Source of the DNA: CBDCXE01 sp965223725 [NCBI: Nitrospinota bacterium]
GTDB taxonomy: Bacteria; Nitrospinota_A; UBA7883
Direction of reading: 5' to 3'
DNA: 64,000 bases
Assembly: GCA_965223725.1 (NCBI GenBank)
Contig: CBDCXE010000001.1
Span: 248,001 to 312,000 of the forward strand
Part shown: one piece after another, positions 18,173 to 48,790 of the stretch
How positions within the stretch are numbered: the first letter of the stretch is position 1
Layout of the letters: each line of letters begins with the position of its first letter
Translations under genes and position numbers: made by a program
The notes under the pieces: model-generated
What the model was told of the DNA's origin: nothing
Databases searched by the model: none
The model's input: only the letters and a program-made list of their open reading frames with translations

Positions 18173-19744
<1,572 letters not shown>

Positions 19745-19843: not shown

Positions 19844-20218
19844 ATGAGCCTGGATGCTGTTGGAATTATCACGGACAATATCGATAGGTCGATACAGTTT
19901 TATAAAACCGTTGGCGTTGATGTGGAAAAAATCGGCGAGGGTCATTATGAAGGATCAACACCAAGCGGCGTCCGAATCATGCTCGATACTGTCGAGCTGG
20001 TCAAGCAGATTAATCCGGATTGGGCTGGCTCTGTCGGCTCTGCCATTGTGCTTTGCTTCAAGCAAGGCTCGCCGGGCGATGTGGACAAGTTATATTCTGA
20101 TTTGACTGGCGCAGGGTTTGAAAGTGTGAAAGGGCCGTGGGACGCATTCTGGGGACAGCGATATGCGTCTGTGTTGGACCCGGATGGGAACCAGGTCGAC
20201 CTGTTCGCCCCGCTATGA
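19844..20218 (+). CDS. Glyoxalase/bleomycin-resistance (VOC) family protein
   Basis: This 124-residue single-module vicinal-oxygen-chelate protein begins AVGIITDNIDRSIQFYKTVG and ends SVLDPDGNQVDLFAPL, the typical closing strand with the metal-ligand Asp/Glu region. Such proteins bind a metal and act as lyases, dioxygenases or resistance proteins. Substrate is unknown. GGGAGG lies before the ATG. It is convergent with the large coiled-coil gene; the stop codons nearly touch. Confidence 0.85.
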   Translation: MSLDAVGIITDNIDRSIQFYKTVGVDVEKIGEGHYEGSTPSGVRIMLDTVELVKQINPDWAGSVGSAIVLCFKQGSPGDVDKLYSDLTGAGFESVKGPWDAFWGQRYASVLDPDGNQVDLFAPL

Positions 20219-20219
20219 G

Positions 20220-23200
20220 CTAGTTCAGGCGCCAGGTGGTTTTGCTGATTCTGTTCAGCTCCGCCTCGAGCGCGCTTTGATTTAGGCTAGGGGTTTGCAG
20301 CAGTTCCTCTTTCAGTTTTTGAATATATCTTTGCTTCTCTTCATGGAGCGCGGTTTCCATCTCTGTGCGTTTGGTCATGATTTCAGCGATCAGTTCCTGC
20401 CGGCGTTTATACTCTTCGGTCTTGATTTCAATATTTGTCAGGTCCAGTTTTTTCTGTTTTTCAACCTCCAGCTCTTGCATCATCATCTCAAACCGTGAGT
20501 TTTTCTCATTGAGCAGTTCAGTATCCAGTTTGTCGATACGCTTCTTATGTTCAGCCTTGATTGTCTCGTTCAACTCGTCTCTTCTGCGTCGTAATTCGGC
20601 GTCCATCTCCGCCCTTATCTTTCGCATCTCGTCATCCCGGGAGCGCTCCAACTCCGACCAGAATGCAAGCTCGGTCTCCCGCTTTTTGATATTGGCTTCG
20701 CTTTCCGCTTTCTTCAGAATTTGCTCAATTTCCTTGTTTGCTTTGCTTTCCAGGCCCGCCCGTTTTATGTTGCTTTCAAGTTGAATCTCTTTATTGAGGT
20801 CTTCATTCAGTTCGGCGCGGAGTTGTTCAACCTCGTACTGCACCCATTCTTTCTGCTTCTCCCACAGCTTGTTCCTTCGTTTGGTCAACGCTTCGTTCAT
20901 CCTGGCCTGGGCGTTTTTGTATTCTTCCTCAAAGACCGCCTGCTGCGCGGCTTTTTCTTCAGCTACTTCTTCAGTGATACGACGCCGGGACTCTGCCATT
21001 TCGGCGTCCAGCTTTTTGGCCAGTTCACTTCGACGATGGATCATATCCTGATCCAGTTGCGCCGCCATCGCGCGCGCCTTGCTCTCCATCTCCCTGGCCA
21101 CATCTACCTTCGCCTCGGTAAGTAGCTTCTCTTTTTCCAAGGCGACGTCATTTTCAATACTGTTCATCATTCCCGATTTCAGGCGCTTGAACTCTTCATC
21201 GACCTGCCGTATGCTTTCCTGTTTTTCCGCGTACAGTTTATCCCGCATGGCGCCGCTGGCCGTTTTGCTGTCCGCCTCCAGCTGCTGTTCAATCATTGTC
21301 AATTTCGCGCTCTCCTGGTCAGATAACCGCGCGTTCATCAACGTGATCCTCCGCTTTTTCTCTTCCTCTTCCCACTGTGCCAGTTTTTCTGCACTCTGGT
21401 TTTTAAGTTGGGCTATTTTTTGTTTCAGCTTTTTATATTCAGCTTCACGCTTCTCTTCGATTTCGTTATCCAGCTCTATTTCCCGACGCATATACTTTCT
21501 GCGTGTTTCCGCTTTCATATTGTCCAGCAGTTCCTTGCGCTCGGTATCGATCCGCTTGAGCATCCTGATCCGGTTGCTTTTCTCGCTTAACGCTGCTTTC
21601 TCCGCCAGTTTTGCCAGCATGTTGTCTTTTTCATTTTTGATCAGCTGGTTCATTTCGCCAACCAGTTTTGTTCGGTTGGATGCTATCTCTCTGTCCAACT
21701 CGTTTTCTTTGGTACTTTTTAGTAGCGCGGCTTCATTTTCTATATTGCGGATGGCGCTTTCCTTCATCTGCGCCAGTTGGTTATTCTGGTAATTGGTCAG
21801 TTCAACCTTTCGCTGGTTCATTTCCTCGGTCAGTTTTTTTAGTTTTTGCTGCCGGACGTCATCAATTTCCTTCTCCAGCTCTTCTGCCTTCAAGGCTTTA
21901 AGCGCTTGCTTGTCACGCTCGATAATCTCGGTCCAGACGGCCTCCTGCTCGCTGGCGCGCTGCTCCATCCGCTCGGCCATTTTTTTGTATTGCGCTTTGG
22001 TCTCCCTGTTTATTTCTTTCTCTTTTTGCAGCTTGTAGTCGTTGGCGGCTTTTTCCAGCTTGAACAGGATGGTATCCCGCTCGAATTCCACACGGCGTTT
22101 CGACCTGGCCCTGAAATCGTTAAGCGCTTCGTTGATCCTTTTACGTCTGATGGCGGACTCTTCACGGAGCTGATAGGTCTCTTTCAGCAAGGCTCGCTCT
22201 CTGGCCTCCGTGATTTCCATATCCAGCTCGTTCAACCTTTGCGTTCTCTGCTCATTTACATAGTCGACCAGCTCCTTGAGCCGGTTCTCCCTTTTTGCTT
22301 CGATTTCGTCACGCATCGCAGACATCAGCCTCTCCCGCTCCAGTGCGATTTCATGCTGGACCGACTCGCGCATCCGCTCGACCTGCGGATAGAACTCATC
22401 ATCAAACGCGCCGCTGATACGCATGACATCATGATGGGCGGATTCGATTAAAGATCGGCTGGTTTCCTTTGCTTCTTTGTCAGCTTTCGCTTTTATTCTG
22501 GCCCTGTATTCTTCGGTTTCCTCGTTCAGCAACTCCATCTCAAGCAATTTCAGGGTTGCCAGCTCTTTATCGATTTCAGATATTCTGTTTTGTTTATCAT
22601 CTTCCAGATCTTGCCAGATTGCCCTTCGCACCTTATCCACATCCTTCAAGGCAGTGGCGTGAAACTGTGCGATCCGCTTATCTTCCAGTGCTTTTAAGGA
22701 TTTATTTAACTCCAAATACTTCTCTTCCTTATAGCGGGCAAGCTCAACCGATGCGGCTTCTTTCGCTTTCTCGATCTCTATTGCCAACTGTTCAAACTGG
22801 CTTTCACGGGTCTTCCTGAACTGGCGCTCAAAATTATCAAGCCTGCTATCCTTGATTCTGTCGACTTCACTTTGCAAGTTTTCCAGGCGTTTGTTTTTAA
22901 GGGTCCGCAGTTCCTTGTTCCGCTCCGCTTCAAGCTGGGAGGTTTTATCCAGGATTTTGTCCAGCTCTTCTCGCTTTTTTGTTTCCAGCTCGGCGGTAAG
23001 TTTGGCGTTGGCAGCTTCAAAGGCGTTATTTAATTCACCATCCAGCTCCGCCTCTTTGGTCAGCTTGAACGCGGCCAGCTCGGAATCTATCTCCACTATC
23101 CTCTGCCGGCGGATTATCAGGATCTCCCTTTCCAGGTCGTCCAGTTTCTCCGATCGAACTTTTGCAATTTCATGGTCCAACGAATCGCTTATTTTTTTGG

Positions 23201-24248
23201 TTTGTCGTTCCAATAGCTGGTTGATGGCGTCGATGGCTTTTACGTCGTATTCAATATCAGTGGCGCCAACAATATTAGCTGTTATTTTCTTATATACCTG
23301 GGTTAGTGGAGCTGTTGGGTCAAGATGCGTTACCGGGTAATTTTTATCAGCGGCTTCTTTAATATACTCATCATCAGGCACAAAACCCAGGTATCCTATT
23401 TTCATACCCAGAGATTGCTCCAGCAATTCCTTTACTTCGACACCGAACCGAACATCATCCATCGAGGTGGCTCTGTTTATTATCAAATGGACAAACGGGG
23501 CCTCGAATAGCTTGTCAAACTTGTCCAGCAGTTCCGGTTTTTTCTCCACCGGTTTTCTAAGGGTTTCCAGTAATGTGCCTTCATTGCCATAAAAGTTATC
23601 AGCGGCCTTCCTGGCCGCTTTGCTTATAAACCGCCATCTATGAAACTCCGTGTCGACGGCTCTTGCCGCCAGCGCTATTATGAGGCGCTTGAGTGTTTTT
23701 AACGACCCTTTCTCCGGCTTGATAACCAATACCGAAACATCCGACATCAGAAAATAGTCGAGCTTGACATTATTGGTAAGCGCGCCCAGGTCAATAACCA
23801 GACGATCAGAGCCGAGCCTGCCCAGCTTTTTTATAAGGTTCTTTTTAAACCTAAGCCTTTTGTCCGCAAAGTTAAAATAGTCCAGACCGCTTTCAATAAG
23901 GGTCAGGTTTTGGACCGGGGTTTTGCGTAAGGCGCTTTTCAGGCTGTTTAATTTTCCGGTAAAGTAGTTTTTGATGAAGTGTGTCCCAGTTGGCAGACCG
24001 AAATAACCGGATGCCCTGGTTGACCCTACCGAAAGGTCGGCCAGGATGCTTTCCATCCCGGAAGTGGCCATGGTGGCGACTACATTGATGGCAGTGGTGG
24101 ATACGCCTATTCCACCGGAAACGGAACCAAACGCGACTGTTTGATCATTTTTATCGGTTGGCGCTTTAATGGAACCTGGTTGTTCGATTGAATTTTCAGA
24201 AAAACTATCTGATTGTTTTTCTGTGAACTGTTGATCCGCAGGATCCAT
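20220..24248 (-). CDS. ParA/MinD-like domain fused to a ~1000-residue coiled coil
   Basis: The protein has 1342 residues. Residues about 36-330 follow the ParA/MinD fold: TVAFGSVSGGIGVSTTAINV (P-loop region), ILADLSVGS (A' region), DRLVIDLGALTNN (Walker B-like) and a C-terminal switch-like part. In the P-loop the signature lysine is replaced by Ser44 and the catalytic lysine by Val49, so nucleotide binding is doubtful. From about 335 to the end almost everything is charged heptad sequence (for example ELDGELNNAFEAANAKLTAE), predicting a very long rod. No membrane segment or signal peptide is seen. The domain resembles the MinD-like protein at 61545-62510. It could be a filament or polar scaffold; this is inference. 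It is divergent from the HEAT/cyclase gene. Confidence 0.82.
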   Translation of the reverse strand: MDPADQQFTEKQSDSFSENSIEQPGSIKAPTDKNDQTVAFGSVSGGIGVSTTAINVVATMATSGMESILADLSVGSTRASGYFGLPTGTHFIKNYFTGKLNSLKSALRKTPVQNLTLIESGLDYFNFADKRLRFKKNLIKKLGRLGSDRLVIDLGALTNNVKLDYFLMSDVSVLVIKPEKGSLKTLKRLIIALAARAVDTEFHRWRFISKAARKAADNFYGNEGTLLETLRKPVEKKPELLDKFDKLFEAPFVHLIINRATSMDDVRFGVEVKELLEQSLGMKIGYLGFVPDDEYIKEAADKNYPVTHLDPTAPLTQVYKKITANIVGATDIEYDVKAIDAINQLLERQTKKISDSLDHEIAKVRSEKLDDLEREILIIRRQRIVEIDSELAAFKLTKEAELDGELNNAFEAANAKLTAELETKKREELDKILDKTSQLEAERNKELRTLKNKRLENLQSEVDRIKDSRLDNFERQFRKTRESQFEQLAIEIEKAKEAASVELARYKEEKYLELNKSLKALEDKRIAQFHATALKDVDKVRRAIWQDLEDDKQNRISEIDKELATLKLLEMELLNEETEEYRARIKAKADKEAKETSRSLIESAHHDVMRISGAFDDEFYPQVERMRESVQHEIALERERLMSAMRDEIEAKRENRLKELVDYVNEQRTQRLNELDMEITEARERALLKETYQLREESAIRRKRINEALNDFRARSKRRVEFERDTILFKLEKAANDYKLQKEKEINRETKAQYKKMAERMEQRASEQEAVWTEIIERDKQALKALKAEELEKEIDDVRQQKLKKLTEEMNQRKVELTNYQNNQLAQMKESAIRNIENEAALLKSTKENELDREIASNRTKLVGEMNQLIKNEKDNMLAKLAEKAALSEKSNRIRMLKRIDTERKELLDNMKAETRRKYMRREIELDNEIEEKREAEYKKLKQKIAQLKNQSAEKLAQWEEEEKKRRITLMNARLSDQESAKLTMIEQQLEADSKTASGAMRDKLYAEKQESIRQVDEEFKRLKSGMMNSIENDVALEKEKLLTEAKVDVAREMESKARAMAAQLDQDMIHRRSELAKKLDAEMAESRRRITEEVAEEKAAQQAVFEEEYKNAQARMNEALTKRRNKLWEKQKEWVQYEVEQLRAELNEDLNKEIQLESNIKRAGLESKANKEIEQILKKAESEANIKKRETELAFWSELERSRDDEMRKIRAEMDAELRRRRDELNETIKAEHKKRIDKLDTELLNEKNSRFEMMMQELEVEKQKKLDLTNIEIKTEEYKRRQELIAEIMTKRTEMETALHEEKQRYIQKLKEELLQTPSLNQSALEAELNRISKTTWRLN

Positions 24249-24590
24249 AATTAATCACCCAATACTGAATAATATTCCACCGAAAGTTACCTAATTATAA
24301 TAGGTTATGTAGATTTTGTCAATGGTTCGGGGCAAAAAGTGAAAGACATATTATTTCAATCCTGTCAGCTTTTACCACGGCTATTGTTATCAGTGTGCTT
24401 GGTATGCCTGTAAACTTGGTATAAAATGAGATATTTTGATTGCTAAACATTGTATAATTCTCGAAGCGTTATACACCCAAAGGGATGTTTTATTTTGGAA
24501 CTGATATGGCATGGTAATTTTCTTCTTCTCTGCTAAGAGATTGCTCATTACGAATATATACCATGCAATATAATATAATGCTAGTAACAT
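24249..24590. other. Divergent promoter region
   Basis: These 342 bases separate the leftward ParA/coiled-coil gene from the rightward HEAT-cyclase gene. The stretch is AT-rich and should hold both promoters. No gene, hairpin or repeat is convincing. Confidence 0.5.
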
Positions 24591-26651
24591 ATGTTTGAAT
24601 CGGTAAAAATTAAGCGTATTCTGTCCCGGTTCTCTACCGCTGATGAATCGGACAAGCCAGAGTTGATCAACCGGCTAGCCACATATGGTGGCCAGGCTGT
24701 GCCTTACTTGGCCGAGGAGGTTATGTCGAACAGAATGCTGCTATCCACAGCGTTCGAAATCCTTGAAAAACTGTTCAAGCCGGAATATCTGGAGATCTTT
24801 GTTAACGGCCTGGATAACGCCAATGAAAACGTTCGGACCATGTACAAGGAGAGCATCCTTAACTATGGAAAGAAAGGGATCATCAACTCTGTGGTGGATT
24901 ACCTGGGCTCCAGCAACCACAGGATACGCAAGAGTATAGAAGAGATGATCGAAGAGGTGGGCTCGCCTGTTTCGCTGGTCCCGAAGGTTATTCCATTCAT
25001 CTCCCATAAAAACAGAGATGTAAAAAAATCCGCCATGGATATTCTTTGCAACCTGGAATCGGAGGAGTCGATAGCAGCTATTGTTCCACTGCTGGATGAT
25101 GACGATACCTGGATCCAACGCAAAGCCATCATGGCCATATGCAAGTTTAATAGCAGATCCACATTGCCACAGCTGCGCGACGCCCTTGCGCATGATAAAG
25201 ATTCTGCTGTGCAAAAGGCTGTCATACAGGCGATGGGTGAAATTGGGGGGACGGATGAAGCCAGGCTGCTTCTGCCATATATTGGGAACCGGGATATCAT
25301 ACTTCAGCAACTGGCCGTCGATAGCATAGTTAAAATCGCGAATGCCTCGATAATCCCAGAGCTGTTGGAATATCTGGGTGACAAAGACGCAAACGTCCGA
25401 AGGGCCGCTGTCTATATCCTGAACGGTTTGAACGACCCGGACACAGCGTCGGTCCTGATCAAGGCGCTGAAAGACGGCGACTGGTGGGTCAGGGAGATCG
25501 CCACAGACGCCTTAAGCGAGCTGGGTGGCAGCAAGATAAGCAGCATGATAATAAAACTGCTGGAGGCGAAGGATGTGGGCATTCGCCGCTCGGCGGTGGA
25601 GTTTTATTGCAAAGTGAAAGACGCAAACGCTTATAAAATGCTGGCAAACCTGCTGAATGATGACGATTGGTGGGTCAGGGAAAAGGCGATCACTGCATTG
25701 GGTCTTATCGGCGACCCCAGGGCGATACCGGCTATCACAAGGATGATCCCGGATTACGAAGTCGTTTGGGCGATCCCAAAAGCCCTCAGCCGGATAGGCG
25801 GAAGCGAAGCGCTTAAACCGTTGGCGCAGTTAATGAATGACCCGCGCAAGCAGGTGCGCAGCGAAGTTGCCAAAGCGCTACATGACATTGGCGGCAAACA
25901 GACCGTGCCATATTTTAAACTGATGGTTAAGGATGAAGACATCGAAATCAAAAATTTCGCGCTCAAGCAGCTGAATGAACTTACGGGGAAAACATGGCAC
26001 GAAACGGAAGTGTTGAAAGAGTTGAAAGAAGCCGAGAAACCAAAAGAAGCGCCAAAGGCAGGCCCGGGCGCCTTTTTGTCGGAGGCGATCCTGGTCGTGG
26101 ATATGTGTAACTCTACAGATAAGGCGAACCTGTATGGGGACAGCCTGGCGTTCAAACTGTTTAATGAGCTTACCGATATCGTCAAACCGATGTGTGAACG
26201 GGAGAAGTTTAACTATTTTAAAACCACCGGCGATGGCTATATGGTCACGTTCCCTACGACGGCAAGCGCCAAAAATGTTGCTGTAGAGCTGTTGAAAAAA
26301 ATCAATAGCAGGAATAAAAAAGTTGATAAGAAAGAGAGGATTGATCTGCGTTTTGCCATCAATATAGGTGAAACCAGGGTAGATATCGGTGAAGACCGGG
26401 TTGGCGCCGCGGTGAATATGACCTTCCGGGTTGAAGGCGTTCAAAAAGATAAAATGATGTCTGCGCCAGGAGGAATAAAACCGGATGAAATGCCGGAAAA
26501 AAACAGGATCCTGTTAACAGAGCAAGCCTATATCAACCTGAACAGCACCGAAGATATTAATGCAAGGTTAATCGGTTTTTTTGAACTGAAAGGTTTCAAC
26601 GGACTGCACCGGATATATCAACTGCTACTATCAAAGAAAAAGCAAGAATAG
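24591..26651 (+). CDS. HEAT-repeat protein with C-terminal class III nucleotide cyclase domain
   Basis: The protein has 686 residues. Residues ~1-475 are HEAT/PBS-lyase-type repeats of about 30 residues (pairs such as DGDWWVREIATDAL and NDDDWWVREKAITALG). A linker rich in Glu, Lys and Pro follows. Residues ~495-680 form an adenylate/guanylate cyclase domain: the metal-binding Asp in LVVDMCNST, a second Asp in TTGDGYMVTF, and AAVNMTFRVEG with the transition-state Asn and Arg. Key residues look retained, so catalysis is plausible. HEAT repeats would bind a partner or control activity. No membrane segment is seen. The divergent neighbour is the coiled-coil ParA protein. Confidence 0.87.
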   Translation: MFESVKIKRILSRFSTADESDKPELINRLATYGGQAVPYLAEEVMSNRMLLSTAFEILEKLFKPEYLEIFVNGLDNANENVRTMYKESILNYGKKGIINSVVDYLGSSNHRIRKSIEEMIEEVGSPVSLVPKVIPFISHKNRDVKKSAMDILCNLESEESIAAIVPLLDDDDTWIQRKAIMAICKFNSRSTLPQLRDALAHDKDSAVQKAVIQAMGEIGGTDEARLLLPYIGNRDIILQQLAVDSIVKIANASIIPELLEYLGDKDANVRRAAVYILNGLNDPDTASVLIKALKDGDWWVREIATDALSELGGSKISSMIIKLLEAKDVGIRRSAVEFYCKVKDANAYKMLANLLNDDDWWVREKAITALGLIGDPRAIPAITRMIPDYEVVWAIPKALSRIGGSEALKPLAQLMNDPRKQVRSEVAKALHDIGGKQTVPYFKLMVKDEDIEIKNFALKQLNELTGKTWHETEVLKELKEAEKPKEAPKAGPGAFLSEAILVVDMCNSTDKANLYGDSLAFKLFNELTDIVKPMCEREKFNYFKTTGDGYMVTFPTTASAKNVAVELLKKINSRNKKVDKKERIDLRFAINIGETRVDIGEDRVGAAVNMTFRVEGVQKDKMMSAPGGIKPDEMPEKNRILLTEQAYINLNSTEDINARLIGFFELKGFNGLHRIYQLLLSKKKQE

Positions 26652-39054: not shown

Positions 39055-42000
39055 ATGCGCTTGCGAAACTTTATTTATAACTTACCACTGATTATTTCCA
39101 CCATCACAGCTTTGTTTGCGTTTGCAGAGGTTGCTGATGCGTTCACCTATAACGTCACCAAAACTGCGGACACCGCCGACGGGACCTGCGACGCCGACTG
39201 CTCGCTGCGCGAGGCGATCACCGCGGCCAACGCTATGGTGGGAACGGATACGATTAACATACCCATCGGGACTTATACGATAACCATTGCCGGAGCAGAT
39301 AATTCGAACGCGACAGGTGACTTTGATATCACGGATCATGTCAACATAACCGGCGAAGGTGTGGATAGTACCATTATAGACGGAGGCGCTATAGATCGTG
39401 TTTTCCATATTCCAGGCGCTTCTACTGCCTCCTTTTCCGGTGTGACTATTCATAATGGCTCTACAACCGCGGCTGGTAGTGGAATATTTGGCAGCACTGG
39501 CTCAAATGTCAGTGTCACCGACTCCGCAATCATTTCCAACACAACGACCTCCAGCGGCGGTGGAGTTTACATCTCTAATGGAACATTAAATGTTACCGAC
39601 TCTACCATCGCTGGCAACACTGCTAATGTCAGCGGCGGTGGTATATTCATCTTTAACAGCACTGTCACATTGACCAAATCGACCGTTAGCGGCAACACTG
39701 CCACAAGTTCAAGTGGTGGTGGTATTAATAATAGTGGTGGGACACTGAATGTGTATAACACGACCATCAGTGGAAACACCGCCACCTCGGGTTCAGGTGG
39801 CGGTATCAATAACACCGGCACAGCCACAATCACCAATTCCACTATCACCGCCAACAACGCTGCTGTAATAGGAGGCGGTATTCGAAATGTGGGCGCAGCT
39901 GCCACGGTAACCATTACCAACAGCATAGTGGCCAACCAGACAAGTGGCCCCGATTGCTCAAACAATCTGGGCACGATCACATCTAACGGCAACAACCTGG
40001 AGAGCGCTACATCGTGCGGGTTCACCGCGGCCGGTGACCAGCAGAACGTCACCAATCCGAAATTGGGAGTGTTGGCCAACAACGGCGGGCCGACCATGAC
40101 CCATGCCCTGCAGGTCGGCAGCCCTGCCATTAATGGCGGGAACAACACGGTCTGCACCAACGCGCCGGTCAGTGGCGTGGACCAGCGGGGCGTTCCGCGG
40201 ACCATCGGCGCCGGCGCTTGTGACATTGGCGCGTTCGAGTATTATGTGCCTGCGACACGCACCGTCACCAAGACCGCCGACACGAACGACGGAGTCTGTA
40301 ACGCCGATTGCTCGTTACGGGAGGCGATCATCGCGGCGAACAGCAACCATGAAGATACCATCAACATCCCAGCGGGAACATACACGATAACCATCGCCGG
40401 CGCCAGTGAAGATTTAAGCGCCACGGGCGATTTTGACATCCTCCGCAGTATGTCGATAGTGGGCGTCGGGGGCCCCACCATCATAGATGGGGGCGCGCTG
40501 GATCGTGTGTTCCATATCATCAGCGGTGTTACCGCCTCCTTCTCCGGTGCTACCATTCAGAACGGCTCAGAATTCACCGGCGGCGGCATTCGCAACAATG
40601 GTGTCACAGTCACGGTCACCAACTCCAACATCAGTGGAAATACAGCGTCCGCTAGTGGTGGCGGCATTCGCAACTTTGATGGCACAATCACGGTCACCAA
40701 CTCCACCATCAGCGGTAATACATCGACCAGTAACGGCGGCGGCATTTATAACAGTGGTGGCACAGTTACAGTCACCGGCTCCACCATCAGTGGTAATACA
40801 TCGACCAGTAACGGCGGTGGCTTGAATAATCAAAGCGGGTCGACAGCCACAATCACCAACTCCACCATCAGTGGCAACACGGGAGTCGCCGGCGGCGGTA
40901 TTATAAACTGGGCCACAATGACAATAACCAACTCTACCATTGCAAATAATACGGATACATCAAACATGGCAGGGGGTATACTAAACATATCCGGAACCAT
41001 TCCTGCCATTCTGTCCAACAGTATAGTGGCGAACCAGGCCAGCGGAGACGATTGCAATAATTTTTCTGGAGGCTTCACCTCCAACGGTAACAACCTGGAG
41101 AGCGGGACATCGTGCGGGTTCATGTCCGCTGGTGATCTGCAGAACGTCACCAATCCGAAGTTGGGCCCCTTGGCCAACAACGGCGGGCCGACGAAGACCC
41201 ATGCGCTGTACTCCGGCTCGCCTGCTGTCAACGCCGGTTCATGCGCCGAAACGGCCGACCAGCGCGGCATCGGCCGCCCATCCGCCGGTTGCGATATCGG
41301 GGCGTATGAATACAACTCCGCAGCCATCAACGATTTCAGCGGGCATGGCAAGTCCGACATACTGCGCAAGTATAGCCCCGACGGCCGCACCCTGGTCTGG
41401 GACATGACCGGCAACATTGTGAACCCTATATTGTGGACAACAATGTTTTTCAACATCAACTGGGAGATCGTCGGTTTCGGCGACTTCAACGGCGATCGAA
41501 AGAACGACATCCTCTGGCTCTACAAACCGGACGGACGCACCCTGATCTGGTTCATGAGCGGCAACGCAGTGATAGGCGCGCAATGGACCACGGTGGCATT
41601 CAACATCAACTGGGAAGTTAAGCAGGTTGGCGATTTCAACGGTGATGGCCGGGCGGACATATTATGGCTCTACAAACCGGACGGCCGGACGCTGATCTGG
41701 ACGATGTATGGCAGTACCGTGGCATTGAACCAGTGGACCTCCCTGGCTTACAACATCAACTGGGAAGTGCTGCAAGTTGGCGATTTCAACGGCGACCGAA
41801 AGAAAGACATCTTGTGGCGCTATAAACCAGACGGACGCACCCTGATCTGGTTCATGAGCGGCAACGCAGTGATAGGCGCGCAATGGACCACGGTGGCATT
41901 CAACATCAACTGGGAAGTTAAGCAAGTTGGAGATTTCAACGGCGACAGTCGATCGGATATATTGTGGCTCTACAAGCCGGACGGCCGGACATTGCTTTGG

Positions 42001-42225
42001 ACGATGTTAGGCAGCACCGTGGCATTGAACCAGTGGACCTCGATGGCGTTTAATATCAACTGGGAAGTGAAGCGTGTCGGCGACTACAACGGCGACGGCA
42101 AGGTGGACATCCTGTGGCTCTACAAGCCGGACGGCCGAACCCTGGTCTGGACAATGAGCGGTAACAGCGTTATATCCAGCCTTTGGACATCAGCCCTATA
42201 CAACACAAACTGGACCGTGGAATAA
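39055..42225 (+). CDS. Secreted CSLREA/beta-helix protein with six C-terminal FG-GAP-like repeats (paralogue 1)
   Basis: The protein has 1056 residues. A signal peptide ends near residue 30 (...FAEVADA). Two modules follow, each with a CSLREA motif (DADCSLREAITAAN and NADCSLREAIIAAN), then right-handed beta-helix turns (STISGNTATSSSGGGI type) and a choice-of-anchor-Q-like end (GSPAINGG ... CDIGAFEY). The C-terminal ~300 residues are six ~50-residue repeats built on DFNGDGRADILW, YKPDGRTLIWTM and NINWEV, ending NTNWTVE. The DxNxDG pattern suggests Ca binding. Function is unknown; a surface adhesin or carbohydrate-binding role is inference. DNA of repeats is nearly identical in places. Confidence 0.9.
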   Translation: MRLRNFIYNLPLIISTITALFAFAEVADAFTYNVTKTADTADGTCDADCSLREAITAANAMVGTDTINIPIGTYTITIAGADNSNATGDFDITDHVNITGEGVDSTIIDGGAIDRVFHIPGASTASFSGVTIHNGSTTAAGSGIFGSTGSNVSVTDSAIISNTTTSSGGGVYISNGTLNVTDSTIAGNTANVSGGGIFIFNSTVTLTKSTVSGNTATSSSGGGINNSGGTLNVYNTTISGNTATSGSGGGINNTGTATITNSTITANNAAVIGGGIRNVGAAATVTITNSIVANQTSGPDCSNNLGTITSNGNNLESATSCGFTAAGDQQNVTNPKLGVLANNGGPTMTHALQVGSPAINGGNNTVCTNAPVSGVDQRGVPRTIGAGACDIGAFEYYVPATRTVTKTADTNDGVCNADCSLREAIIAANSNHEDTINIPAGTYTITIAGASEDLSATGDFDILRSMSIVGVGGPTIIDGGALDRVFHIISGVTASFSGATIQNGSEFTGGGIRNNGVTVTVTNSNISGNTASASGGGIRNFDGTITVTNSTISGNTSTSNGGGIYNSGGTVTVTGSTISGNTSTSNGGGLNNQSGSTATITNSTISGNTGVAGGGIINWATMTITNSTIANNTDTSNMAGGILNISGTIPAILSNSIVANQASGDDCNNFSGGFTSNGNNLESGTSCGFMSAGDLQNVTNPKLGPLANNGGPTKTHALYSGSPAVNAGSCAETADQRGIGRPSAGCDIGAYEYNSAAINDFSGHGKSDILRKYSPDGRTLVWDMTGNIVNPILWTTMFFNINWEIVGFGDFNGDRKNDILWLYKPDGRTLIWFMSGNAVIGAQWTTVAFNINWEVKQVGDFNGDGRADILWLYKPDGRTLIWTMYGSTVALNQWTSLAYNINWEVLQVGDFNGDRKKDILWRYKPDGRTLIWFMSGNAVIGAQWTTVAFNINWEVKQVGDFNGDSRSDILWLYKPDGRTLLWTMLGSTVALNQWTSMAFNINWEVKRVGDYNGDGKVDILWLYKPDGRTLVWTMSGNSVISSLWTSALYNTNWTVE
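41530..41924 (+). repeat. 300-bp higher-order repeat within paralogue 1
   Basis: The 95 bases at 41530-41624 recur without change at 41830-41924, exactly 300 bp later. The flanking bases are also similar, so two ~50-codon repeats were duplicated or converted as a block. Confidence 0.9.
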
Positions 42226-42625
42226 TAAGCTTAGCTAGTAAAAAATGTGCCAATGCATTACTTGCAAGACTACTGAGGAAATTATAGTTTGCAAATAGCG
42301 GGTTAGGCATTTGGAGCATATGAGGGATTTGAGGGGTCCAGTTTGCCCGGTTTGGCGTGACCATTGTGATACCTGAAGCCCCGCTGGCTCTGCCTCGCAA
42401 ACCACTGGTATTGTTACCGGTAGCAGTATTTTCCCTCCTGTAAGCATAACCACCACCCGAAGGATCTTCCCCCAAGTATCAGCATAACTCGCAGCGGCTG
42501 TATCGCCTTTGATTAGGGCCAAAGTATTGGCCTATGCTAACTATTGACATAGTATAAAGCATGGAGGTACAATAGATCGAAATCCCACATATTACAATAA
42601 TATAGCAGTCAATCAGGAGTCGTTG
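42226..42625. other. Intergenic region between paralogues 1 and 2
   Basis: No gene is supported in these 400 bases; open frames on the minus strand look accidental. AGGAG at 42615-42619 is the ribosome-binding site of the next gene. Confidence 0.5.
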
Positions 42626-45600
42626 GTGTTCTCGACCAGGTTATTTTATCAACAAGCATTTGTCATTTTCCTGGCTGCGTTTCTGCTCATGACCACAGCG
42701 CCAGCTTATGCAGACACTATTAGGGTTAATTCAGCTGATGACACTCTACAAAATGGTGATGCTAAATGTACATTGCGTGAAGCTATCACAAACGCTAATG
42801 ATAATGCCAATACCTACACAGAATGTTTCAGAATTCCAACTGCCGGTGTTGATATTATTACATTCAGCTTCAGCTATAAAATTTTGATAAATATTACTGG
42901 TACAGGTGAAGACCTCAACACCAAAGGTGATTTTGATATCACCGATAGTGTGACCTTTGAGAACACCAACATCAGCCCAGTTATTATAGACGGCAACGGG
43001 CTTGATCGTGTTTTCGATATTATAGGCTCCTCCACCACTGTATCTATTTCGAATATCACGATCCAGAATGGCGCAGTCATCGGCACAGGCGGTGGCATAA
43101 ACAGCAGTGGTACATTGACAGTCACCGACTCTACCATAAAAAACAACTCTTCCAGCAGTTTCGGTGGCGGTATTCTAAGTAATGACGGCGCAACGCTCAT
43201 TGTCACCCGCTCCACCATCAGCGGCAATACCAGCGGCTCCAACGGCGGTGGTATTTATAATATTGGCGCGCTTACAATTAATAACTCCACCATCAGCGGC
43301 AACACGGCCGCTGCCAATGGAGGTGGAATTAGTCTTTTCAGCGCCGTCGCCGCATCAGCCACGATTAATAACTCTACCATAACCGGTAACAACGCTTCCA
43401 CAGGTGGTGGCATTATAAACAGTGGCATGACTACCAGCCTTACCAATAACATTGTCGCAGACCAGCTGTCGGGCGCCGATTGTAGCGGAACCATCACATC
43501 ATCCGGTTATAACCTGGAGAGCGGGATATCATGCGGGTTTACCGCGGCCGGTGATTTGCAGAACACCAACCCGATGTTAGGTCCATTAGCGAGCAACGGC
43601 GGGTTAACCATGTCCCATGCTCTGCTGGCTGGCAGCTCGGCGATCGATGCAGGGACTTGTACTGTGGCCATGGACCAGAGAGGCGTTGCCAAACCACAGG
43701 ATGTAACCTGTGATATTGGGGCATACGAATATTCGGCGCCCATGACATTCACGGTCACTAAAACTGAAGACACCGCAGATGGAGCCTGTGACGCCGACTG
43801 CTCCATAAGAGAGGCCATAGGCGCCGCCAACATGCGTTCAGGCGCCACTGTCAGCATCCCGGCCGGGAATTACACCACAACCCTTGCCGGCGCGTCTGAA
43901 GATGCAAACGCCACCGGCGATTTTGATATATTGAGCAACGTCACGATCATGGGCGCCGGCGCCAACTCGACTATTATCGACGGAGGTGGGCTGGATCGTA
44001 TATTTCACATCAATGGATTATTCAATGTCTCTATTACCGGAGTCATTGTGCAAAATGGCAATACAGACACTTCCTTTGGTGGTGGCGGCGGTATATTGAA
44101 TGATGGCGGTGCGCTCACTATCACCAGTTGTGCGGTGAGTAATAATATTTCTAACATTGGTGGTGGCGGTATCCTCAGCGAGTCCGGCTCGCTTAATATA
44201 ATAAACTCCACTATCAATGGTAACGAATCTACAAACTCGGCTGGCGGCGGCGTCAACAACCAGGGTGGGGTGTTCACCGTCAATAATTCCACATTTAGCG
44301 ACAATACGTCGGATGCCAACGGAGGTGGAATCTATAACGGTTTCGGTTCTGTCGTCACAATCACAAACTCTACCATTACCCGCAACTGGGGCAAAACAGG
44401 AACCAGCGCCAGCGGTGTTCGTAACTGGGGCTCCACAATTACATTTTCCAATACCATTGTGGCCAACCAGATCAGCGGGGCAGATTGCCACGTAGCCCAT
44501 GGTGGGGTGAACATTTCCGACGACCATAACCTGGAAAGCGGGACATCCTGCGGGTTCACTGAGGCCAATGACATTCAGGGCACCGATGCGTTGATCGCAC
44601 AATTGTCGAACAATGGCGGACCCACCCCCACCATAGGGCTGAAGGTTGGCTCGCCTGCAATAGATAGTGGATCGTGTGTAAACCCAACCGATCAACGCGG
44701 TGTCGCACGGCCCCAGGGCGCCGCTTGTGATATTGGAGCATTTGAAGGGTTGGTAACCACCAGCACATTTACAGTCACCAAAACCGAGGACACAGCAGAT
44801 GGAGTGTGCGACGCAGACTGCTCATTGCGGGAGGCGGTCATCGCCGTAAATAATGGCTCTGGCGCCGGTGATACTATTAACATACCGACCGCAGGGCTAT
44901 ACGCGCTCACCCGTGCTGGGGCAGGCGAGGATATGGCCTCCACAGGTGACCTCGACCTTCTGAAAATTGTAACCATCGTGGGCGCCAGCAGTAACTCTGT
45001 CATCATCGACGGCGGCTCGCTTGATCGTGTGTTCCACAACATCGCGGCTGATAATACAACCATATCTGGCGTCACCATACAAAACGGCTCTGTCACCGGC
45101 GATGGCGGCGGCATCTGGACCGAGCATCCACTTACCATAAACAGATCAGTTATATACAATAATGCGGCCACAGCGCTGGGTGGTGGTATCTATGGCAACG
45201 GCACGACAGTCTCCATTAACGAATCCACCATCGGCAATAACAGCGCCACAGGCGACGGAGGCGGCTACTATAGTTTGGATTCCACAGTATCCATCAACCG
45301 CTCCACGATCAATAACAACAGTTCCAGCAGTAGTGCGTCTATTTTAAATGGCGGCGGCGGTTTCTATAGCAGAAGCTCGTCCGGCACAACAAATGTTACC
45401 TTCACCAATACCACCATCAGCGGCAATACAGCGGCAGGTTACGGAGGTGGACTTTACATCTTAGGCCAGGCAGAGATCAAGAATAGCACCATTACGGCAA
45501 ACAGCGCGCCAACTGGTGGCGGTATTTATAGATTTAATGGCGCAACCAACCTTGCCAACAGTATCGTGGCGAATCAAACCAGCGGAGGAGATTGTTCTTC

Positions 45601-48094
45601 ACTGAGTGGCTCTATCACATCATCTGGCTCCAACCTGGAAAGCGCTACATCCTGCGGATTTACAGGAACAGGTGACTTGCAAAACAGTAACCCGCTACTA
45701 GGCCCGTTGGCGGATAACGGAGTCCCGACCATGACCCATGCCCTACTGCCAGGAAGCCCCGCCATCAACGCAGGAAATAACGCAACATGCGAATCCACCG
45801 ATCAGCGTGGTGTTATAAGGCCGCAAGGCGTCAACTGCGATATCGGCGCGTATGAGTCTGGCGCTGCTATCCATACGGTCAGCACCTCTGTGGCAAACGG
45901 CAGCATTACGCCCGCCAACGCTGTGGCGGCGGATGGAATGACGACAACGTTCGGAATTTTCCCGAATATTGGACATCACATTGTTTCTGTAACTGGTTGT
46001 GGTGGGTCGTTGGTGGGTGGTACCTATACAACCGGCCCTATCACCGCGGATTGCACAGTCACCGCAACTATTGCGATCAACACCTATATAGTGACCGCCA
46101 CGGCTGGGTCTAATGGGTCGATCACTCCGCTCAGCCAGACTATCGATCATGGTTCGACAGCCATTTTCACGATCACGCCTGACTTTGGTTATTCGGCTGA
46201 TGTGACTGGTTGTGGCGGGTCGCTGGTTGATGTGACGTACACCACCGGGCCGATCACCGCAGCGTGCACTGTGACGGCTACTTTCATACTAAACTCACAT
46301 ACGGTCACAAAGACAGCGGACACCGCCGATGGGTTCTGCGACGTTGCCGACTGCTCATTGCGGGAGGCTGTCATGGCGGCCAACAACAGCCTCGGCTTTG
46401 ATAACATCAATCTGCCTGATGGTGTATACACTATCGGTATTGGCGGAGCCGGCGAAGATCTGGGCGCAACCGGCGATATTGATATCACTGGTGATTTTGC
46501 GTTGACGCCCATCGGCAACGGCCCTGTGATCATCGATGGCGGTGGCAACGACCGGGTGTTCCACATCATCGGGGCTCATACGGTTTCCCTTACTGGCATC
46601 ACCATCCGCAACGGCTCTGTCACTGGCCCCGGCGGCGGTATCTTCAACGACGGCGGCGCGCTGACTATTGAAAACTCTGTCATTCACGGCGGTATGTCCA
46701 CCACATCTGGCGGCGGTATCCACAACACTGGCACTGTTAACATTGTCAACTCCACGGTCAGCGGTTCATCGGCCACGGTATCTGGCGGCGGCATAGGCAA
46801 TAGCGGCGCCATAAACGCGACCAATGTCACCATAACCGATAACAGATCCGCCGACGGAGCCGGAATCTGGAACAGCGGCGGCGCTGTAAAACTTGATAAC
46901 AGCATAGTGGCCGGTCAGGCCAGCGGTGTTGATTGCAGCGGCGCGATCATGTCCGATGGTCACAACCTGGAAAGTGGCGTATCCTGCGGGTTCACGCAGG
47001 CTACTGACCTGCAGAACAGCGACCCGAAGCTGGGCCCGTTGGCGTATAACGGCGGGCTGACCAAGACCCATGCGCTTCTTGTCGGTTCACCTGCCAGGAA
47101 TGCTGGTTCTTGTGTCAACCGGTTTGATCAGCGCCACGTATCCCGGCCGTATGGTGGCTTATGTGACATTGGATCGTATGAAAAACTTCTGGCTTTGAAC
47201 GATTTCAATGGTGATGGTATAGCTGAAGTGTTAAGAAAATATATACCAGACGGACGGACACTGGTCTGGAAAATGGCGGTTAACAAAGTATCCACCACCC
47301 TATGGACCTCACAGTTCAACAATATCAATTGGGGGGTGGTCGGCTCTGGTGATTTCAACGGGGATAATCAGCAAGACATATTGTGGCAATACAAACCAGA
47401 CGGCCGGACCCTGATCTGGCTCATGAAAGGCAACGCGGTGATAGGCGCGCAATGGACATCGATGTTTTTTAATATAAACTGGGAAGTGGCTGATGTTGGT
47501 GATTTTAATGGTGATGGCCTATCGGATATTCTGTGGCGTTACAAACCGGATGGCCGAACCTTGATCTGGACGATGAACGGAAACAATGTGATCGCCAGTA
47601 AATGGACATCAATAGCTTTTAATCTCAATTTTGAGATCACCGGCGTCGATGATTTCAACAACGATGGCATGACAGACGTATTATGGCGACACAAGCCGGA
47701 TGGCCGGACATTGCTTTGGACAATGCAAGGGTCAGCCGTATCGTTGAGCCAATGGACCTCGCAATCATTTAATATCAACTGGGAGGTTGCCCGCATTGGT
47801 GATTTTAATGGTGATGGCAAGGCAGACATATTATGGCGCTACAAACCGGATGGTCGAACCTTGATCTGGATAATGACCAGGAACTATGTGATCGTCAGCA
47901 AATGGACATCGTCGTTTTTCAATATAAACTGGGAAGTGGTCCAGGTCGGCGATTACAGCGGCGACGGTAAAGAAGATATATTATGGCGCTACAAACCAGA
48001 CGGGCGGACGCTGGTCTGGACAATGCTGGGGACCAAAGTCGCACTTAGCAATTTCACTTCAGTGCAGTACAACACCAACTGGACCGTGGAGTAA
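42626..48094 (+). CDS. Giant secreted CSLREA/beta-helix protein with InlB-like and six FG-GAP-like repeats (paralogue 2)
   Basis: The protein has 1822 residues. GTG at 42626 is 6 bases after AGGAG; a TTG at 42623 is the alternative. A signal peptide ends ...TTAPAYA. Four CSLREA-type modules follow: the first is degenerate (AKCTLREAITNAN), then CSIREA, CSLREA and DVADCSLREA, each with beta-helix turns and an anchor-Q-like end. Between modules 3 and 4 are two bacterial-repeat (InlB B-like) units with VTGCGGSL and YTTGPITA. The C-terminal six repeats end NTNWTVE. Modular growth by duplication is evident. Function unknown; surface location is inferred. Confidence 0.9.
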   Translation: MFSTRLFYQQAFVIFLAAFLLMTTAPAYADTIRVNSADDTLQNGDAKCTLREAITNANDNANTYTECFRIPTAGVDIITFSFSYKILINITGTGEDLNTKGDFDITDSVTFENTNISPVIIDGNGLDRVFDIIGSSTTVSISNITIQNGAVIGTGGGINSSGTLTVTDSTIKNNSSSSFGGGILSNDGATLIVTRSTISGNTSGSNGGGIYNIGALTINNSTISGNTAAANGGGISLFSAVAASATINNSTITGNNASTGGGIINSGMTTSLTNNIVADQLSGADCSGTITSSGYNLESGISCGFTAAGDLQNTNPMLGPLASNGGLTMSHALLAGSSAIDAGTCTVAMDQRGVAKPQDVTCDIGAYEYSAPMTFTVTKTEDTADGACDADCSIREAIGAANMRSGATVSIPAGNYTTTLAGASEDANATGDFDILSNVTIMGAGANSTIIDGGGLDRIFHINGLFNVSITGVIVQNGNTDTSFGGGGGILNDGGALTITSCAVSNNISNIGGGGILSESGSLNIINSTINGNESTNSAGGGVNNQGGVFTVNNSTFSDNTSDANGGGIYNGFGSVVTITNSTITRNWGKTGTSASGVRNWGSTITFSNTIVANQISGADCHVAHGGVNISDDHNLESGTSCGFTEANDIQGTDALIAQLSNNGGPTPTIGLKVGSPAIDSGSCVNPTDQRGVARPQGAACDIGAFEGLVTTSTFTVTKTEDTADGVCDADCSLREAVIAVNNGSGAGDTINIPTAGLYALTRAGAGEDMASTGDLDLLKIVTIVGASSNSVIIDGGSLDRVFHNIAADNTTISGVTIQNGSVTGDGGGIWTEHPLTINRSVIYNNAATALGGGIYGNGTTVSINESTIGNNSATGDGGGYYSLDSTVSINRSTINNNSSSSSASILNGGGGFYSRSSSGTTNVTFTNTTISGNTAAGYGGGLYILGQAEIKNSTITANSAPTGGGIYRFNGATNLANSIVANQTSGGDCSSLSGSITSSGSNLESATSCGFTGTGDLQNSNPLLGPLADNGVPTMTHALLPGSPAINAGNNATCESTDQRGVIRPQGVNCDIGAYESGAAIHTVSTSVANGSITPANAVAADGMTTTFGIFPNIGHHIVSVTGCGGSLVGGTYTTGPITADCTVTATIAINTYIVTATAGSNGSITPLSQTIDHGSTAIFTITPDFGYSADVTGCGGSLVDVTYTTGPITAACTVTATFILNSHTVTKTADTADGFCDVADCSLREAVMAANNSLGFDNINLPDGVYTIGIGGAGEDLGATGDIDITGDFALTPIGNGPVIIDGGGNDRVFHIIGAHTVSLTGITIRNGSVTGPGGGIFNDGGALTIENSVIHGGMSTTSGGGIHNTGTVNIVNSTVSGSSATVSGGGIGNSGAINATNVTITDNRSADGAGIWNSGGAVKLDNSIVAGQASGVDCSGAIMSDGHNLESGVSCGFTQATDLQNSDPKLGPLAYNGGLTKTHALLVGSPARNAGSCVNRFDQRHVSRPYGGLCDIGSYEKLLALNDFNGDGIAEVLRKYIPDGRTLVWKMAVNKVSTTLWTSQFNNINWGVVGSGDFNGDNQQDILWQYKPDGRTLIWLMKGNAVIGAQWTSMFFNINWEVADVGDFNGDGLSDILWRYKPDGRTLIWTMNGNNVIASKWTSIAFNLNFEITGVDDFNNDGMTDVLWRHKPDGRTLLWTMQGSAVSLSQWTSQSFNINWEVARIGDFNGDGKADILWRYKPDGRTLIWIMTRNYVIVSKWTSSFFNINWEVVQVGDYSGDGKEDILWRYKPDGRTLVWTMLGTKVALSNFTSVQYNTNWTVE

Positions 48095-48219
48095 CAAGTA
48101 AAGACGCAGCAGGGAAGATTGTACCGCTGTCCCACACACAGAAAAGCCTGCTTGACAAGCATTTGCTCCGCTATCCCCACCGATTGCGCCACCATCTGCC
48201 CTCTGTTCCATATCACAAA

Positions 48220-48730
48220 CGCTTCAATAGTGGCGAATCAGGCCAGTGGGGCCGATTGTGTTGTTTCTGTTGGGTCGACCTCGTCCTACGGCAAAAACCT
48301 GGAGTACGGAACATCGTGCGGGTTTACTGGAACCGGTGATATTCAGAACGCTGACCCCAGGTTGGGTCCATTGGCCAACAACGGAGAGCGGCCATGACCC
48401 ACGGGTTGTATGCCGGATCGCCTGTGATCAACGCCGGTTCATGCGTCGAAGCGACCGACCAGCGCGGCATTGGCTGACCTTCGGCCGGTTGTGATATCGG
48501 GGCGTATGAATATAACAACGACGCCAGCAACAATTTCAGCGGATAAGGTATGTCCGACATACTGCGCAAGTATAGCCCTGATGGTCGGACAGTGGCCTGG
48601 GATATGACCGTCAACAACGCCTCTTCCGCTCTATGGACGTGAATGTTTACAACATCATCTGGGACGTTGTGTGTGCAAGAGGTTTCAATGGTGATGGCCG
48701 GGTGGGTATATTATACTGGTAGCAAGCAGA
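48220..48730 (+). pseudogene. Decayed fourth member of the CSLREA/FG-GAP family
   Basis: Traces of an anchor-Q-like end (SIVANQASGADC, GTSCGFTGTGDIQNADP, LGPLANNG) are followed by a frameshift, then INAGSCVEATDQRGIG, a stop, CDIGAYEYNNDASNNFSG, another stop, then DILRKYSPDGRTVAWDM and a further stop. It resembles the C-terminal half of paralogue 1 more than paralogue 2 and lacks the signal peptide and all but about one terminal repeat. Confidence 0.88.
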
Positions 48731-48790
48731 GGTAAGGCTGTTGGTGTTATGTTATATTTGGACATGGCTAACTAGGGGAACCATCCACAA

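What the first reader, a model, noticed from the sequence alone, without database searches (positions are those of the whole stretch)
20220..24248. 1342-residue protein: ParA/MinD domain with a lost P-loop and ~1000 residues of coiled coil
Sequence shows a ParA/MinD-type N-terminus in which both lysines of the deviant Walker A motif are replaced (Ser44, Val49), joined to an uninterrupted charged heptad array to the C-terminus. ParA-family proteins usually stand alone and need the lysine. The fusion could be a scaffold that keeps the surface-binding fold but does not cycle nucleotide, perhaps forming a cytoskeletal rod. I do not know a described protein with this architecture.
Basis: partly seen in the sequence, partly recalled or inferred. 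Interest (0 to 1): 0.75.

Follow-up and report, generated by a model that had tools for sequence, protein, structure and literature searches.

The report
Dead MinD head on pentadecad rod
A group of uncultured Nitrospinota-type bacteria makes a long, probably abundant protein in which a burnt-out version of a cell-positioning enzyme is joined to a roughly 1000-residue helical rod with an unusual 15-residue repeat, which looks like a new kind of internal scaffold.

Summary
The ORF is real: minus strand, 24248 to 20220, 1342 aa. An FlhG/MinD-like head (residues 34-340) is followed by about 997 highly charged, helical residues. Ser44 and Val49 stand where the Walker A lysines belong. Two corrections. 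First, the rod is not a heptad array: hydrophobic periodicity is 3.746 (15/4, pentadecad), with nothing at 3.5; SMC arms from two related genomes give 3.50. Second, P-loop loss is not conserved: of 16 fused proteins (window included) 14 keep that lysine; it was lost twice, here and in G014. All 16 lack the signature lysine and the second Asp of DxD. The rod was found in 19 of 24 held genomes of one Nitrospinota-type phylum, 3 of 77 in a neighbouring one, and none of the other genomes sampled. Fused rods are 986-1000 residues in 13 of 16, with a conserved C-terminus; nine members of the window's side of the tree have sigma70-type promoters matching 10-12 of 12. Two genomes keep a somewhat shorter rod without the head. 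In G009 and G010 a homologous, shorter version with an intact Walker A sits beside motA/motB. Best reading: a strongly expressed cytoskeletal or pole scaffold about 150 nm long, with a retired FlhG-type head as passive docking part. Function is inferred.

The parts
20220..24248 (-). Whole ORF, 1342 aa plus stop: degenerate FlhG/MinD-like head plus pentadecad rod
   Evidence: orthologues
23229..24149 (-). FlhG/MinD-like P-loop domain, residues 34-340, with a helical insert (about residues 185-245) that aligns with stand-alone FlhG-like proteins of related genomes
24099..24119 (-). Walker A remnant SGGIGVS, residues 44-50: signature lysine is Ser44, P-loop lysine is Val49
24021..24047 (-). Walker A' (DxD) remnant ILADLSVGS, residues 68-76: Asp71 kept, second Asp replaced by Ser73
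   Evidence: 0 of 16 fused members have the second Asp
23790..23792 (-). Walker B Asp153, invariant in the 15 aligned heads
   Evidence: column D120 of A1
20223..23213 (-). Rod, residues 346-1342, about 997 residues, period 3.746 (15/4, pentadecad)
   Evidence: helical in a no-alignment AlphaFold2 model of residues 1006-1342
22593..22643 (-). Conserved rod patch, residues 536-552 (W545 and E549 identical in 16 of 16 fused members)
22401..22424 (-). Conserved rod patch, residues 609-616 (M609 and D616 identical in 16 of 16)
20223..20453 (-). Conserved C-terminal motif, residues 1266-1342 (E1274, E1278, R1283, Q1284, E1304, K1305, E1330 and terminal N1342 identical in 16 of 16); a similar end closes the head-less members
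   Evidence: head-less ends
24294..24322 (-). Perfect sigma70-type promoter TTGACA-17-TATAAT, 45 bp before the ATG; similar sites before eight related genes
   Evidence: a consensus match, not a test of function
24255..24260 (-). Shine-Dalgarno-like GGGTGA, 6 nt before the ATG
   Evidence: sequence

Best explanation
It is a lineage-specific, strongly expressed structural rod, probably cytoplasmic. The N-terminal head descends from an FlhG/MinD-type ATPase. The ancestor of the fused family lacked the signature lysine and the hydrolytic second DxD aspartate, so the head most likely no longer cycles. The pentadecad rod oligomerises permanently, so ATP-driven dimerisation was no longer needed. The head then served as a fixed docking part (FlhG/MinD surface partner, pole or membrane) while the rod, about 148 nm if fully helical, sets a spacing or builds a filament or polar scaffold through its conserved C-terminus. 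In the window lineage and in G014 even the P-loop lysine was dropped; in G031 and G032 the whole head was dropped and a rod of about 870-880 residues kept. Shown: architecture, residue losses, period, near-constant rod length in fused members, conserved C-terminus, promoter matches, head-less relatives. Inferred: oligomer, filament, docking, location, expression level.
For: Signature Lys in 0 of 16 fused members; second DxD Asp in 0 of 16; P-loop Lys in 14 of 16. In 14 comparison rows the signature Lys is present in 14, but nine of those were picked by a GKGG string, so only 5 of 5 is independent; second Asp in 10 of 14. The aligned Asp is the one that differs between PDB chains 4rz2 (D) and 4rz3 (A); that 4rz3 is a hydrolysis-dead FlhG mutant is recalled. 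P-loop loss needs 2 changes and head loss 1 on the rod tree. Period 3.744-3.750 in 12 of 12 rods tested, powers 32-81, power at 3.5 of 1.2 or less. 986-1000 rod residues in 13 of 16 fused members. Conserved C-terminus. dN/dS 0.11-0.28 head and 0.07-0.17 rod in 4 pairs. Promoter match of 10-12 of 12 in 9 of 9 genes with readable upstream on the window's side of the tree, versus 6 of 61 control genes at 10 or more and 1 of 61 at 11 or more; restricted to controls able to have their own promoter, 5 of 38 and 1 of 38. Head-less rods in G031 and G032: no head remnant in six frames of the fetched stretches apart from G031's separate FlhG-like gene.
Against: McdA lacks the signature lysine (Ser) and is a very active ATPase (PMC6328274, passages), so that loss alone does not stop cycling; 14 of 16 members keep the P-loop lysine and may bind or use nucleotide. 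BcsQ is listed with RGGVGTT (PMC9178275, passages), so a lost P-loop lysine is not unique. The second DxD Asp is also missing in 4 of 14 comparison rows, G009 and G010 with intact Walker A among them, so it is not a mark of the fused family alone. The head-less rods are shorter (878 and 870 residues in rod columns) and G005 has 938, so length is not absolute. The window lineage evolves faster than its nearest kin (rod end branch 1.29 versus 0.59-0.72; head 0.99 versus 0.30-0.70), which also fits decay. Eight more distant members (G014, G024-G030) reach only 8 or 9 of 12 promoter matches. No structure of the head: the single-sequence model had pLDDT 43. No data on oligomer or filaments.
Confidence: 0.5

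Rival explanations
1. The head is still a nucleotide switch in most members (McdA-like, with another residue in place of the signature lysine), and the rod is a lever or tether; only the window lineage and G014 lost it.
For: P-loop lysine in 14 of 16 fused members; McdA precedent (PMC6328274, passages).
Against: The second DxD Asp is missing in 16 of 16; P-loop and head losses are repeated.
Confidence: 0.25
2. It belongs to the flagellum or motor: a stator- or pole-associated scaffold descended from a flagellar FlhG fused to a coil.
For: In G009 and G010 the homologous protein with intact Walker A directly follows motA, motB, motB (flgD and flgE also lie in the G010 locus); 14 of 19 rod-bearing genomes have fliG.
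Against: 5 of 19 rod-bearing genomes show no fliG, three of them one clade (G001, G003, G006; draft assemblies of unknown completeness). Ten neighbours of fused genes were Pfam-scanned and none is flagellar; the other neighbours were not scanned.
Confidence: 0.15
3. In the window itself the gene is decaying: the head is losing function and the rod is a relic.
For: Both lysines lost and long end branches; related genes in G005 and G029 carry one in-frame stop each.
Against: A 1342-codon open frame, perfect promoter match, conserved C-terminal motif and coherent period in all three thirds of the window rod.
Confidence: 0.07
4. SMC/Rad50-like or single free helix (ER/K-type), not a coiled coil.
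For: 44% charged residues.
Against: A coherent hydrophobic stripe at 3.746 over 997 residues, while SMC arms peak at 3.50; no SMC domain in the Pfam scan of the window protein.
Confidence: 0.03

Closest known systems
FlhG/FleN/MinD ATPases (PDB 4rz2/4rz3, 1ion, 8pb9)
   Same: Among the best profile matches of the head, E 1.2e-22 to 8.7e-16; Walker B region kept.
   Different: Signature lysine and second DxD Asp missing in all 16 fused members; P-loop lysine missing in the window; about 1000-residue rod at the C-terminus.
McdA (carboxysome positioning)
   Same: Ser in place of the signature lysine (PMC9178275 and PMC6328274, passages).
   Different: McdA keeps the P-loop lysine and is active (same passages); no rod (recalled).
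FrzS/AglZ of Myxococcus
   Same: Concept: a signalling domain that lost its chemistry, at the head of a long coiled coil (FrzS pseudo-receiver: PMC1974792, abstract; the long coils and AglZ are recalled).
   Different: Different head fold; rods not compared here.
Scy/FilP of Streptomyces
   Same: Scy has a rod of over 1000 residues with a non-heptad repeat; cytoskeletal (PMC9858780, passages).
   Different: Hendecads, a DivIVA-like head and Actinobacteria only; here pentadecads and a MinD-like head.
YadA-type stalks
   Same: 15-residue right-handed repeats (PMC3539135, passage: ten repeats).
   Different: Surface adhesin with a short stalk; here 997 residues, about 66 repeats' worth, and no domain other than the head in the Pfam scan.

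Membership tests
ParA/MinD (FlhG) ATPases | Deviant Walker A KGGxGK[S/T] | tested here: not met
   Window SGGIGVS
ParA/MinD (FlhG) ATPases | Second Asp of DxD (hydrolysis) | tested here: not met
   Ser73 in window; 0 of 16 fused members; but also absent in 4 of 14 comparison rows
ParA/MinD (FlhG) ATPases | Homology across the whole domain | tested here: met
   Profile hits to FlhG/MinD structures, both halves aligned to FlhG; curated NCBIfam cut-offs not reached
ParA/MinD (FlhG) ATPases | ATP-dependent dimer, membrane or DNA binding | not testable with these tools
   Needs biochemistry
Heptad coiled coil (as in the finding) | Hydrophobic period 3.5 | tested here: not met
   Power 0.3 at 3.5
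Pentadecad coiled coil | Period 3.75 with core positions a, d, h, l | tested here: met
   Peak 3.746; a/d/h/l spacing clear in G008, G033 and G014 with the l position weaker, blurred but present in window; definition from PMC9858780 (passages)
Pentadecad coiled coil | Actual oligomer with right-handed supercoil | not testable with these tools
   No multimer modelling available
SMC/Rad50 | ATPase halves at both ends, hinge, heptads | tested here: not met
   No SMC hit, no heptads
Scy/FilP/DivIVA-like | DivIVA-like N-terminal motif and hendecads | tested here: not met
   No DivIVA hit at E up to 0.01; power at 11/3 of 1.5
FrzS/AglZ | Pseudo-receiver head | tested here: not met
   No receiver-domain hit in the window protein at E up to 0.01

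The most novel reading that the evidence does not exclude
A new family of bacterial cytoskeletal ruler: a right-handed pentadecad rod of nearly fixed length (about 148 nm), fused to an FlhG/MinD head that was progressively switched off (second DxD Asp and signature lysine first, then the P-loop, and in another branch the whole head), because a permanent coil took over the dimerising role of ATP.
Probability: 0.4. Interest if true: 0.78.

Novelty: new variant of a known kind. Interest (0 to 1): 0.62.

Why it matters
It gives a graded natural series: a head with intact Walker A (though already without the second DxD Asp) on a shorter coil, a head without signature lysine, a head without the P-loop lysine, and no head at all, with the rod kept. 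That makes it directly testable whether the MinD fold can serve as a pure docking module once a coil replaces ATP-driven dimerisation. A rod of about 1000 residues with one coherent 15-residue period would also be an unusual test object for right-handed coiled coils inside cells. No paper describing this architecture turned up in the listings of the searches made.

Tried and rejected
Rejected: heptad coil; P-loop loss as a family trait; assembly chimera (colinear orthologues); defence-system part (PADLOC: one weak hit of the coil to DruG, E=6e-4); phage protein (PHROGs: none); recent tandem duplication of the rod DNA (one 21-bp array); a conserved operon partner (neighbours differ between loci; a transketolase pair, Pfam-tested in G004 only and matched by similarity or by eye in G034, G029 and G030, lies near the gene in those four).

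Led nowhere: the head against genome contigs, viral contigs and plasmids found no relative; AlphaFold2 of the head alone had pLDDT 43 and was not used for a fold search. Rod profiles in other phyla: 0 of 198, 0 of 297, 0 of 246 and 0 of 4 genomes; the first three are samples, and the tool warns that an empty answer alone shows nothing. I tested whether the coils of G009-G011 are similar by repeat only: under --max they scored 48-159 bits, against at most 18.5 bits for 40 register-preserving shuffles.
Full report
WHAT IS THERE. The ORF 20220-24248 is real and complete, but on the minus strand. It has a Shine-Dalgarno-like GGGTGA and, 45 bp before the ATG, a 12-of-12 sigma70-type promoter match TTGACA-17-TATAAT. 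It is divergent from a HEAT-repeat/cyclase gene (24591-26651) and convergent with a glyoxalase-type gene (19844-20218). No genome is held for the window. Its MqnE gene is 70-77% identical to that of eight MAGs (L001-L008) titled Nitrospinota, Nitrospinaceae or Nitrospirae, so I treat the source as a Nitrospinota-type bacterium.

HEAD. Residues 34-340 are a ParA/MinD-class domain: AAA_31 2e-4 and minD_arch 3.4e-13, both under curated cut-offs. A profile of 15 sequences (window and 14 orthologues) finds FlhG (4rz3, 1.2e-22), MinD (1ion, 3.1e-20) and FleN (8pb9, 8.7e-16). Ser44 and Val49 replace the two Walker A lysines; Ser73 replaces the second Asp of DxD; Walker B Asp153 is kept.

ORTHOLOGUES. 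Searching 20 genomes reached through the MqnE loci, then the 24 held genomes of one phylum, with the window head gave long fused proteins. A profile of the last 200 residues (A2) then hit 20 of 46 genomes: 19 of those 24, plus a weak hit in G011; it missed the 12 genomes of other groups included. The five misses of the 24 are G007, G012, G021, G022 and G023. Of the 19, 15 are fused head-plus-rod genes (G005 and G029 with one in-frame stop each), two are rods without a head (G031, 893 aa; G032, 919 aa) and two are cut by contig ends (G001, G033). A head profile searched in six frames with filters off finds no head in the fetched stretches around the rods of G031 and G032, apart from G031's separate FlhG-like gene, while it finds the heads of G034 and G010 in the same run. 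The A2 profile gave 0 of 198 and 0 of 297 genomes in two other phyla. A mid-rod profile (A3) gave 2 of 77 (G009, G011; G010 in that set was missed), 0 of 246 and 0 of 4.

RESIDUE LOSSES. With the window there are 16 fused proteins. Signature lysine: 0 of 16. Second DxD Asp: 0 of 16. P-loop lysine: 14 of 16, lost in window (Val) and G014 (Ala). In 14 comparison rows (G009, G010, G007, G031 stand-alone, G021 stand-alone and nine FlhG-like frames) the signature lysine is in 14 of 14, the second Asp in 10 of 14 and the P-loop lysine in 13 of 14. The nine frames were picked by a GKGG string, so for the signature lysine only the other 5 of 5 count as independent. The four rows without the second Asp are G009, G010, G007 and the G031 stand-alone protein, so that loss is not peculiar to the fused family; in the line leading to it, it may have come first. 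The fused heads form one supported clade (100/99). The window groups with G034, G002 and G004 (94/89), all with the lysine; G014 groups with G028 (98/95), which has it. On the rod tree the P-loop loss takes 2 changes and the head loss 1; several deep branches of that tree, including the window's, are unresolved. McdA shows that loss of the signature lysine alone is compatible with strong ATPase activity (PMC6328274, passages), so I rest the 'no cycling' inference mainly on the DxD Asp.

ROD. Hydrophobic periodicity of residues 346-1342 peaks at 3.746 with power 68.8; the value at 3.5 is 0.3 and at 11/3 is 1.5; 500 shuffles reach at most 11.4. The three thirds of the rod peak at 3.74, 3.754 and 3.75. 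Twelve of 12 rods tested, including head-less ones, G009 and a G011 fragment, peak at 3.744-3.750. Four SMC arm stretches from two related genomes peak at 3.50-3.504. 15/4 = 3.75 is the pentadecad, right-handed about as strongly as heptads are left-handed (PMC9858780 and PMC4786415, passages). Rod length is 986-1000 residues in 13 of 16 fused members; the others are 976 (G029), 974 (G030) and 938 (G005); the head-less rods have 878 and 870 residues in the same columns, and G009 has 621. Against the window, the 12 uninterrupted fused orthologues then in hand differ in the rod by indels of 4 or 11 residues, about one or three helical turns, apart from single-residue ones and one of 3. A no-alignment AlphaFold2 model of residues 1006-1342 is three helices, 1007-1161, 1169-1318 and 1324-1340, mean pLDDT 81.5. 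Seventeen rod residues are identical in 16 of 16: W545, E549, M609, D616, E637, E659, R1124, E1134 and nine between 1263 and the terminal Asn1342. dN/dS in four close pairs is 0.11-0.28 for the head and 0.07-0.17 for the rod. At 0.148 nm per residue (recalled value) the rod would be about 148 nm.

EXPRESSION. On the window's side of the tree the best promoter match upstream is 12 of 12 in window, G034, G002, G003 and G032, 11 in G004 and G006, 10 in G008 and G031 (9 of 9 at 10 or more); among 61 other genes in the same loci 6 reach 10 or more and 1 reaches 11 or more. Many of those may lie inside operons; for 38 with a divergent or distant upstream neighbour the figures are 5 and 1. In G014 and G024-G030 the best match is 8 or 9 of 12. 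In G002 and G032 the match sits 3 and 10 bp from my predicted start, so the true start is probably downstream. High expression is inferred from these matches, not shown.

ORIGIN. G009 (960 aa) and G010 (677 + 259 aa) have an FlhG-like head with intact KGGVGKS (second DxD position Ser) on a shorter coil, directly after motA, motB, motB. The coils of G009, G010 and G011 match the rod profile at 48-159 bits, above all 40 register-preserving shuffles (maximum 18.5), so they are probably homologous. In that phylum (77 genomes) G009 and G010 are the only ones with frames over 450 aa among the listed A1 matches. This points to a flagellar FlhG as ancestor, though the head tree does not join G009/G010 directly to the fused clade. 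Five of 19 rod-bearing genomes have no detectable fliG, so the present role is probably not flagellar only.

MECHANISM. I commit (0.5) to a structural rod with a retired head: permanent oligomerisation by the coil removed the need for ATP-driven dimerisation, the head became a docking surface, then lost its P-loop (window, G014) or was deleted (G031, G032), while the rod and its C-terminus were kept. Oligomer, filament, location and partners are inferred.

KNOWN OR NEW. No family of this architecture was found in Pfam, NCBIfam, PADLOC or PHROGs beyond the head's weak ParA/MinD matches and one weak coil hit to DruG, nor in the listings of the paper searches made. Parts are known (MinD fold, pentadecads, long-coil scaffolds), hence 'new variant of a known kind'.

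Noticed in passing
window 18218-19744: A serine recombinase gene (18218-19711, +) overlaps one end of a tRNA-Met gene (19668-19744, -), the look of an element integrated at a tRNA.
   Followed up: no
window 24591-26651: HEAT-repeat protein with a C-terminal adenylate/guanylate cyclase domain, divergent from the rod gene.
   Followed up: no
window 39055-50887: Three large proteins (1056, 1823 and 698 aa) with FG-GAP repeats in a row, two of them also with beta-helix matches.
   Followed up: no
L103 8583-12380 and L132 7271-11176: Rod genes of G005 and G029 each carry one in-frame stop (TAG, TAA) at positions equal to window residues 1190 and 1169; error, decay or a true split is open.
   Followed up: partly
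L135 6103-8000: G031 has a stand-alone FlhG-like protein with GGSGRT (Arg for the P-loop lysine), next to an ORF that looks like a J-domain protein (recalled label), a few kb from its head-less rod.
   Followed up: no
L107 1968-4445 and L108 3346-6105: Two tandem motB-like genes after motA in G009 and G010, before the FlhG-coil gene; the second one of G009 gives a weak ZorB match in PADLOC.
   Followed up: no
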